Assembly: GCA_009760855.2 (NCBI GenBank)
Contig: WPIO01000105.1
Coordinates: 565,001 to 629,000 of the forward strand
Length of the DNA stretch: 64,000 nucleotides
Direction: 5' to 3'
From: Cristatella mucedo
Taxonomy: Eukaryota > Bryozoa > Phylactolaemata > Cristatellidae
In this document: piece after piece, positions 3,623-46,556 of the stretch
Numbering within the stretch: the stretch's first letter is position 1
Layout: the number at the start of each line of letters is the position of its first letter
Notes under the pieces: model-generated
The model's database searches: none
The model's input: only the letters and a program-made list of their open reading frames with translations
Told to the model about the DNA's origin: nothing
Translations under genes and position numbers: made by a program

Positions 3623-3813
3623 TCAACAATATGTGACAAGTTTTGCATTGACGATTTGACGACACATAGGACAAGAATGCACTTGATCTGCACACTCCTG
3701 GCACACACAAAAGTGACCGCAAGGGCTCATCGTAATCCTTATAGGCTTAACTAGGCAGACTTTGCATGTTACCAATGCGCGTAGTCGATCCAACTCGACA
3801 GCATTAGCAGCAG
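3623..3813 (-). CDS. RING terminal exon, copy 1
   Basis: A 191-bp terminal exon. The acceptor is excellent: a pyrimidine run ending TTTTTCAG just before 3,813. The exon is entered in phase 1 and ends at a TGA. It reads LVTCKVCLV, then [13 protein letters not shown], then SCPMCR, giving Cys-x2-Cys-x11-Cys-x-His-x3-Cys-x2-Cys-x6-Cys-x2-Cys. This is exactly the spacing of IAP/BIRC RING fingers (E3 ubiquitin ligase module). The RING sits at the extreme C-terminus, as in IAPs. All eight ligands are present. An ATG 40 bases further upstream lies in the intron and is not the start. Confidence 0.88.
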
Positions 3814-45000: not shown

Positions 45001-46556
45001 GTTTCAGCCACAAAACATTGCTACAATTTGGGCGTGTTTAGGCAGGGATACCAGATCTAAATTCGCCCGGCATTTCACTGCTTGCTGGTCCACTTGCCTG
45101 TTCCACCTGGTCTGGTTTTTGGAGTCACATAGTTTGTCTACTCCTCTTACAAACCTCAGATCCCTTGGAAACCGTGCCGTTAGTGTGTATGGTCTCAAAG
45201 CCTGGAACTCTCACCCGACATACGTCACGACATCCGTTGGCTTGACCACATTTAAAAATAAACTAAAAGCGCACCTGTCCATCATTTGGTGGGTCCTTGT
45301 GGTTAGACCTTTGCTTGCTAATGCCAACTGACCCTGTGCATGTCAACTCTAACCATGCTACTGGTGTTGTTTGTTGAGCACGCTACCACTAACTAATCAA
45401 TTGTGTGTCGTTTGCAGAAAATTTAAAGTGCCTAGACTGAGATTGATTTCTCCGAGGGAGCTACATAAGATGCGCTTTTGAAAACTCCGTTCACTCGCGA
45501 TTGCATGGAGTGACCGACTAGAGCTAACAGCCAGCAATTTTGGCAATTCAGTGTACCTTATCTGATGCCTTGTTTCTTTGCGAAACTTGTTAATTATGCA
45601 ATTAAGTTTTGGAAAAGGAATTGCAGCACTTTTTGAGGCTTTTCTAGGTTAATAAAATCTTTCTTACAAGTATGGCAAGCTTGTTCGTATGAGCCATAAA
45701 TAAGGTATAATGTAAACTCACCTAGCAAAAACCGAGCTTTAAATTAACTAAAACCGCACTGGAGCGGTGACACCTGTTAGTACACCTGTGGGCACTCATT
45801 GTTGGGCTATACTTTGGGTTCCAGTGTAAACGTCAAGCCAATTTGCATTTAGTTCTCCTTCTCTTCAATGGTATTGACACGCTCATTGTACACTTGCTCA
45901 ATAGTAATGTTGCCCTTTGGTGTCATTCCAATATCTAGACTGGAATCCAGTCTGAGACCACCCACAAGATTGGCCCAGTGGTTAAAAAGCTAGCTTGGAC
46001 GATCGAAGTCAAGGTCATCGTATTTAACGCCAAAAGTCGCGCGCTCGACCCCTGTTCTAAAAGTGACGTCCCTGAGTAAGTATTATGTTCTCTGATGGCG
46101 CTATACAGATGAATTTTACTTGCTTATATGTATACAAATAACTCACTTGTCACTAAAAATTGTAAAAGAAATCCGCTGTTTGGCTAAATGTAGAGATATA
46201 CATTTTGTCGTGAAATATATTTGTTTTTAAAATATGATTGCTTTGTAGGGCACGCTAAAGAACTCGGTCTCTTGTCAGATGCTTGACATATGCCGCGGGG
46301 CTGGAGCCCACGACCTCGCCAACAAATACATTTACATTGACCGTGGTCGGGGCGAAAAATTGTCAGACTTTGTATAGTAGTAAAGTAGTACAGTAGAGCC
46401 CTACGCTAACTTACCGCCATAGAAAAATCCAGCATCAGCCAATTCATCCGCACGTTGTGCAGTTATAAGAGCCGCCGGTAATACGTTGTAACTGTGCCGA
46501 CGAATTAACAGACCAGAGAAATATGGGTAGCAGCAGCTAGAGCTGACTCCCGCCAT
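35864..46556 (-). CDS. IAP-like protein (split BIR plus C-terminal RING), copy 2
   Basis: Second copy of the minus-strand gene, exons 46,556-46,415, 42,426-42,336, 38,628-38,440 and 36,054-35,864. All four have the same lengths and phases as copy 1, with GT/AG borders preserved and no stop in frame. It should encode the same BIR-linker-RING layout and, by family, an E3 ligase or caspase-binding regulator of cell death or innate signalling (inference). Against copy 1 I count about 29 amino-acid changes in about 202 residues, concentrated in the linker and RING exons, with only three silent changes. All RING ligands and the BIR Cys-x2-Cys and His remain. As in copy 1, one exon between exons 2 and 3 is not securely identified. 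Confidence 0.7.
37032..37087. repeat. Perfect inverted repeat, copy 2
   Basis: Same 25-bp-arm hairpin as 4,745-4,800 with the same loop, kept without mismatch. Confidence 0.97.
37947..38147 (-). CDS. Possible small ORF, identical to the one in copy 1
   Basis: Counterpart of 5,569-5,769 with the same 66-residue translation ([10 protein letters not shown]...). No splice borders or domain recognised. Confidence 0.25.
   Translation of the reverse strand: MSLRGLNLGQPHKQLKHSHIHSQLLEEYYEVVKEYVEIREAENSNADITRLSTAKVIVSLKTDKCN
38440..38628 (-). CDS. Linker exon of the IAP-like gene, copy 2
   Basis: 189 bp, same acceptor and donor as copy 1, frame open. It starts [13 protein letters not shown] and ends [13 protein letters not shown] followed by ADAE, as in copy 1. 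The middle differs strongly: 12 residues changed, among them Lys to Thr, Gly to Arg, two Met to Ser and Lys, and Asn to Ile. Only one silent change is seen. Confidence 0.68.
38895..39460 (-). mobile_element. LINE-B 3' part, copy 2 equivalent
   Basis: Counterpart of 6,556-7,110, with the same [19 protein letters not shown] reading. Confidence 0.72.
40120..41045 (+). mobile_element. LINE-B 3' part split by SINE-1, copy 2
   Basis: Counterpart of 7,720-8,830 with the same nested SINE. It lacks the extra 210 bp of copy 1 near 8,262, so its C-terminal segment is continuous ([11 protein letters not shown] motif near 40,700). Confidence 0.78.
40312..40497 (-). mobile_element. SINE-1, copy 2 equivalent
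   Basis: Complete counterpart of 7,905-8,063, keeping the A-box end (GATGGCACACTAGGTAAAGC on the minus strand) that copy 1 has lost. Confidence 0.88.
41500..41672 (-). mobile_element. SINE-1, copy 2 equivalent
   Basis: Counterpart of 9,350-9,525, with B box GGGTTCGAATCC on the minus strand. Confidence 0.88.
41673..42180. mobile_element. LINE-B fragments, copy 2 equivalent
   Basis: Counterpart of 9,526-10,025, ending in the plus-strand 3' box (GTAAAGCGCCTAGAGAGAG) at about 42,110. Confidence 0.65.
42336..42426 (-). CDS. BIR second-half exon, copy 2
   Basis: 91 bp, acceptor CTGTTTTTTAG, donor CTTAAA|GTAAGG. It matches copy 1 except for one base, which changes RLRHLK to RLCHLK. The Cys-Phe-Tyr-Cys core is unchanged. 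The near-identity of this exon contrasts with the divergent linker and RING exons. Confidence 0.72.
44060..44115. repeat. Perfect inverted repeat, copy 2 only
   Basis: Arms of 24 bp (44,060-44,083 and 44,092-44,115), loop ACAGCTGC. Copy 1 has the left arm and loop start at 13,225-13,256 but not the right arm. Confidence 0.97.
44235..44430 (-). mobile_element. SINE-1-like element, copy 2
   Basis: Counterpart of 13,375-13,560. A second partial head of the same element (AGTGACACCACCCGGGCTAA to CATCCTACGATG) lies at about 44,650-44,740, only in copy 2. Confidence 0.7.
44643..45672. other. Copy-2-specific replacement block
   Basis: About 1 kb that replaces a different 250-bp segment (13,782-14,030) of copy 1 between shared flanks. 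It contains the partial SINE-1-like head and a plus-strand LINE-B C-terminal and 3' part. Confidence 0.75.
44990..45485 (+). mobile_element. LINE-B C-terminus and 3' end, copy 2 only
   Basis: Reads [20 protein letters not shown] then [12 protein letters not shown], the family C-terminus, and ends with the 3' box (AAAGTGCCTAGACTGAGATT). It may have arrived with the block that replaces copy 1 sequence here. Confidence 0.78.
45948..46130 (+). mobile_element. SINE-2, copy 2 equivalent
   Basis: Counterpart of 14,310-14,490, almost unchanged. Confidence 0.8.
46247..46375 (-). mobile_element. SINE-2 reverse, copy 2 equivalent
   Basis: Counterpart of 14,625-14,750. Confidence 0.7.

What the first reader, a model, noticed from the sequence alone, without database searches (positions are those of the whole stretch)
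3623..46556. Exons of the duplicated IAP-like genes differ far more than their introns, almost all by amino-acid changes
Comparing copy 1 and copy 2 exon by exon I count: exon 1, 6 base changes (5 replacing, 1 silent); exon 2, 1 replacing; linker exon, 14 (13 replacing, 1 silent); RING exon, 14 (13 replacing, 1 silent). That is about 32 to 3 in about 613 bp (5.7%), whereas intron next to the linker exon shows about 1% (one change in the 110 bp upstream of it, about five in the 490 bp downstream). No RING ligand, BIR ligand, splice site or reading frame is lost. Neutral decay would not spare frames and concentrate in coding bases. Diversifying selection fits, as in immune gene families. Exon-limited gene conversion from other paralogues is the main alternative.
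Basis: partly seen in the sequence, partly recalled or inferred. Interest (0 to 1): 0.9.

Follow-up and report, generated by a model that had tools for sequence, protein, structure and literature searches.

The report
Fast-diverging duplicated RING gene in animal
Two neighbouring copies of a small apoptosis-inhibitor-like gene have drifted apart faster in their protein-coding parts than in the surrounding DNA, mostly by changes to the protein, which suggests natural selection favoured difference after the duplication.

Summary
The window, from an unnamed 572-Mb genome (an animal, by inference), carries two copies of a block (107-19394, 32893-50453), each with the same minus-strand gene. Non-coding divergence of the block is 2.9% (2.7% outside repeats), not 1%, which holds only beside these exons. 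Silent divergence (0.026, three changes) matches the non-coding rate; replacing divergence (0.082) is about three times it. Omega is 4.1, p 0.007; 30 of 34 changes fall in codon positions 1 and 2. Two other RING exon pairs of the genome have omega 0.11 and 0.20. No third copy that could donate exons was found. Best reading: positive selection on a duplicated RING gene with half a BIR. Evidence is moderate: no exon is significant alone, the background is mosaic, and only two sequences exist.

The parts
14798..14939 (-). copy 1, exon 1: ATG to phase-1 donor (GGCG|GTAAGT); first half of a BIR domain
   Evidence: exon 1+2 peptide matches PF00653 positions 17-46 of 70
10185..10275 (-). copy 1, truncated BIR exon; phase 1 to 2, breaks the frame into the linker exon
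6061..6246 (-). copy 1, linker exon, phase 1-1; second half predicted as one long helix (moderate confidence)
3623..3813 (-). copy 1, RING exon with stop codon; PF13920
46415..46556 (-). copy 2, exon 1 (6 of 142 bases differ)
42336..42426 (-). copy 2, truncated BIR exon (1 of 91 bases differs)
38440..38625 (-). copy 2, linker exon (14 of 186 bases differ)
35864..36054 (-). copy 2, RING exon (14 of 191 bases differ); PF13920
107..19394 (.). duplicated block A (the 5 kb left of the window are withheld, so nothing beyond them could be compared)
32893..50453 (.). duplicated block B
56839..57012 (-). third, older RING exon (42-43% identical to copy 1)

Best explanation
The block was duplicated, and afterwards the small RING gene took on amino-acid changes faster than neutral: positive selection after duplication (diversifying selection or functional divergence of the two products). 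Shown: both frames are intact, the RING zinc ligands are kept, silent sites are near the non-coding rate, and replacing changes are about three times that rate. Inferred: splicing joins exon 1, linker and RING exon (all phase 1) and skips the truncated BIR exon; the product is a 172-aa RING protein, likely an E3 ubiquitin ligase, with half a BIR; the changes lie just before and in the first part of a predicted helix and at RING positions that are not zinc ligands, so they would alter partner choice rather than the fold. What drives the selection (pathogens, substrate, dimer partner) is unknown; an immune arms race is a guess.
For: Coding 34 of 519 against non-coding 419 of 14,653 and against 28 of 1,200 in the 200-column flanks (Fisher 3e-5); against unique non-coding 242 of 8,956, Fisher 7e-6. 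NG86 dN 0.082, dS 0.026; omega 4.06, LRT p 0.0069; linker+RING omega 5.4, p 0.005. Observed/expected under the block's own substitution spectrum: replacing 3.04, silent 0.75. Codon positions 14/16/4 (p 0.004). Family controls: of 14 RING exons compared, 3 pairs have dS below 1: two others with omega 0.11 and 0.20, this pair 2.82. BIR exons of a C365/C122 group: L029 against L030, 4 of 120 with identical peptide, flanks 61 of 798; these loci were picked for like BIR scores, which favours alike peptides.
Against: Only two sequences, three silent changes, no outgroup close enough to polarise most changes. Single exons: omega 1.66 (p 0.63), 5.3 (0.053), 5.1 (0.056). Counting changed codons once, 28 replacing to 3 silent, p 0.012. 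Mosaic background: 1.9-2.6% of random triplets reach 34 changes. The truncated BIR exon is less diverged than its flanks (1 of 91 against 13 of 200), which may mean that it is constrained and my gene model incomplete. The locus was picked by a reader scanning for oddities; p-values are not corrected for that. No transcript evidence.
Confidence: 0.6

Rival explanations
1. Older duplication with patchy gene conversion between the two copies that homogenised introns, while selection or chance kept exons out of the converted tracts.
For: Strong mosaic: variance/mean 5.1; identical runs up to 515 columns against 219 on average in shuffles (maximum of 500 shuffles 423); flanks of the three coding exons are lower than the block mean.
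Against: Unconverted exons should be old at silent sites too, yet dS 0.026 does not exceed the non-coding 0.027-0.029, though on three silent changes only. Conversion would have to spare each of three exons. It may still act alongside selection.
Confidence: 0.16
2. Chance: the mosaic has other islands of 5-10% divergence, and three exons happened to lie in such islands.
For: Islands of 5-10% exist in non-coding DNA (e.g. 6321-6846, 8478-9364); triplet test 1.9-2.6%; single exons not significant.
Against: Does not explain the replacing:silent skew (p 0.006, or 0.012 per codon), the codon-position skew, or the low flanks (0.13%).
Confidence: 0.13
3. Assembly artefact: the two blocks are the two haplotypes of one locus, placed in tandem; the finding would then be two very different protein alleles.
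For: 3% divergence with many indels is plausible between haplotypes of an outbred invertebrate (recalled); no reads were available.
Against: Sequences beside both block ends differ between the copies. The spacer 19395-32764 had 217 hits elsewhere in the 264 kb compared; the 25 longest, the only ones viewed, look like dispersed repeats. The two withheld 5-kb stretches could not be compared.
Confidence: 0.09
4. Exon-limited conversion from another paralogue.
For: Changes stop at the exon bounds.
Against: No donor found: exon 1, linker exon and linker-region DNA each twice only, next RING exon 43%. A donor would bring silent changes as well.
Confidence: 0.02

Closest known systems
Tandem IAP (BIR-RING) expansions of bivalves (hard clam, oyster, scallop)
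   Same: IAP-type RING, tandem duplication, exons of fitting phase, altered domain architecture (PMC7831173 and PMC8917759, passages seen)
   Different: In the hard clam six tandem IAPs have Ka/Ks 0.08-0.45, purifying (PMC7831173, passages); in the scallop a small share of sites tests positive (PMC7893105, passages). Here the pair as a whole has omega about 4 and the BIR is truncated.
Snake venom multigene families (three-finger toxins; accelerated segment switch in exons)
   Same: Exons of duplicates diverge while introns stay alike (PMC2474615, abstract and passages)
   Different: Here single-base changes, not switched segments; a RING protein; two copies only.
cIAP1, cIAP2 and XIAP RING domains
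   Same: Best solved relatives of the RING exon, best E 1.3e-12
   Different: No complete BIR; no UBA or CARD listed by the Pfam scan of the 172-aa frames up to E 10.

Membership tests
IAP family (BIR plus RING) | complete BIR domain with CX2C...H...C zinc site (motif recalled) | tested here: not met
   exon 1+2 peptide reaches PF00653 (26.6 bits, cut-off 22.9) over positions 17-46 of 70 only, and exon 2 breaks the frame; the genome-wide BIR scan, 54 matches listed, has none in the window
IAP family (BIR plus RING) | C-terminal RING of IAP type | tested here: met
   PF13920 46.7 and 46.2 bits; best PDB matches of copy 1 are cIAP1, cIAP2, XIAP
Gene pair under positive selection | dN/dS above 1 over the joined exons | tested here: met
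   omega 4.06, LRT p 0.0069; not significant exon by exon
Gene pair under positive selection | coding rate above a neutral rate from the same block | tested here: met
   replacing changes observed/expected 3.04; for all coding changes, placement tests that allow for the mosaic give 0.0013-0.026
Gene pair under positive selection | excess against orthologues or polymorphism | not testable with these tools
   no relatives of this genome are held (output)
GC-biased gene conversion in exons | excess of differences between A/T and G/C | tested here: not met
   22 of 34 coding against 329 of 419 non-coding

The most novel reading that the evidence does not exclude
An IAP gene lost the working half of its BIR, became a small helix-RING ligase, and its two copies are now under strong diversifying selection across helix and RING surface: a fast-evolving recognition or counter-pathogen ubiquitin ligase born from an IAP, against the purifying rule reported for tandem IAPs of the hard clam.
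Probability: 0.25. Interest if true: 0.65.

Novelty: new member of a known kind. Interest (0 to 1): 0.48.

Why it matters
Coding exons that diverge faster than their own introns are unusual and are a direct sign of positive selection with a built-in neutral control. Finding it in an IAP-derived RING gene, while other IAP exons examined in the same genome are conserved, points to one gene and a short list of residues that can be tested for new partners.

Tried and rejected
Global MAFFT of the two blocks misaligned about 11.7-14.0 kb; replaced by 20 anchored segments. A complete BIR exon was sought by motif and by the genome-wide PF00653 scan: none in the window. GC-biased conversion not indicated. 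Repeats as the cause of the high background: repeat 177 of 5,697 (3.1%) against unique 2.7%, so not the main cause. Rfam: no match in the window. AlphaFold of the RING exon was of no use (pLDDT 46.5); of the linker exon one helix at residues 23-61, mean pLDDT 69.6; no fold search was run. Of the 27 RING matches, 3 lie in the window; I fetched 14 of the other 24; L042, L046 and L048 gave no RING by the motif used, leaving 14 exons (11 loci, the third RING exon, the two copies). Of the 54 BIR matches I took six as exon/flank controls, chosen for like scores; among their 15 pairs, three pairs (L030, L031, L032) have no difference at all, and the L033-L034 flank figure (26%) rests on a doubtful alignment. 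Polarising by other RING exons gave only weak hints: T at 122 and S at 132 of copy 2 occur in other paralogues, P at 133 of copy 1 in the third RING exon, so both copies may have changed. Literature searches: (the latter: IAP genes, positive selection, intron, RING, tandem) returned no paper. The species was not identified.

Full report
Setting. The window is C6:565001-629000 of an unnamed assembly of 572 Mb in 688 contigs; that it is an animal is inferred from its many intron-bearing IAP genes. It holds a duplicated block, 107-19394 and 32893-50453, with 15,172 aligned columns and 453 differences, 3.0%. DNA of the linker-exon region occurs exactly twice among the matches found in the assembly.

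Gene. On the minus strand each copy has exon 1 (ATG, first half of a BIR), a short exon with the middle of a BIR, a linker exon and a RING exon. Exon 1, linker and RING exon join in phase 1 to an open frame of 172 codons in both copies. I read it as a remnant that splicing skips; this is inferred, no transcripts were seen. Against it, that exon is less diverged (1 of 91) than its flanks (13 of 200), as a constrained exon would be. The RING is of IAP type and its ligands are kept in both copies.

Counts. Exon 1, linker and RING exon: 6, 14 and 14 changes in 142, 186 and 191 bases; 31 replacing and 3 silent; codon positions 14, 16 and 4. Non-coding: 419 of 14,653; unique non-coding 242 of 8,956; flanks of 100 columns on each side 1, 3 and 2 of 200 for exon 1, linker and RING exon.

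Selection. dS 0.026 is near the non-coding rate, dN 0.082 is about three times it; omega 4.06, p 0.0069; linker and RING exon together 5.4, p 0.005; single exons are not significant at 0.05. Given the block's own substitution spectrum, 31 or more replacing of 34 has probability 0.006, and 0.012 when changed codons are counted once. The background is overdispersed, so the rate contrast is better judged by the placement test: 2.6% for total changes, 1.9% outside repeats, 0.13% when flanks are as low as seen.

Controls. Among 14 RING exons compared (14 of 24 loci outside the window were fetched, 11 usable), 3 pairs have dS below 1: two others with omega 0.11 and 0.20, and this pair with 2.82. BIR exons of six loci on C365 and C122, picked for like scores, change little: L029 against L030 4 of 120 with identical peptide and 61 of 798 in flanks. 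GC-biased conversion is not indicated. Conversion from a third gene has no known donor.

Meaning. The best reading is positive selection after duplication of a small RING gene with a truncated BIR. In the linker exon the 13 changed codons lie at 59-92; 9 of them fall in the first part of a helix predicted for codons 70-108 with moderate confidence, 4 just before it. In the RING exon they lie at positions other than the zinc ligands, some next to the loop that contacts E2 enzymes and at the C-terminal tail used for dimerisation in known IAP RINGs (recalled, not tested). In the literature seen, tandem IAPs of the hard clam are under purifying selection (PMC7831173, passages), the scallop shows a few positive sites (PMC7893105, passages), and venom genes show exons diverging more than introns (PMC2474615, abstract and passages).

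Limits. Two sequences, no orthologues, no transcripts, no reads; the species is not identified; the locus was chosen because it looked odd. On checking, the confidence was lowered slightly (0.62 to 0.60), because the low divergence of the truncated BIR exon relative to its flanks and the choice of the BIR controls had not been told.

Noticed in passing
14951-15035 against the junction 46567/46568: Copy 2 lacks 85 bp that copy 1 has, ending 11 bp upstream of the start codon; the 5' end or promoter may differ between the copies.
   Followed up: partly
6247-6255 and 38626-38634 (minus strand): The linker exon has a tandem acceptor TTTTAGTAG; both sites keep the frame, adding or dropping one residue.
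   Followed up: no
18877-19394, with its partner ending at 50453: 515 aligned columns without a base difference (across one indel) at the right end of the block, longer than in any of 500 shuffles: recent conversion or constraint.
   Followed up: partly
56839-57012; C6:629674-629772; C6:645869-645985: An older RING exon in the window and two BIR exons right of it, one with an in-frame stop: perhaps remains of a wider IAP cluster.
   Followed up: partly
L030, L031, L032 (C365 and C122): IAP copies on two contigs with 0 of 800 flank differences: very recent copies or duplicated assembly.
   Followed up: no
17021-17296, 26718-26993, 30110-30310, 32770-33045, 60947-61222, 61821-62096: A dispersed repeat of up to about 280 bp with at least 6 copies in the window on both strands; one copy overlaps the left edge of block B.
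   Followed up: no
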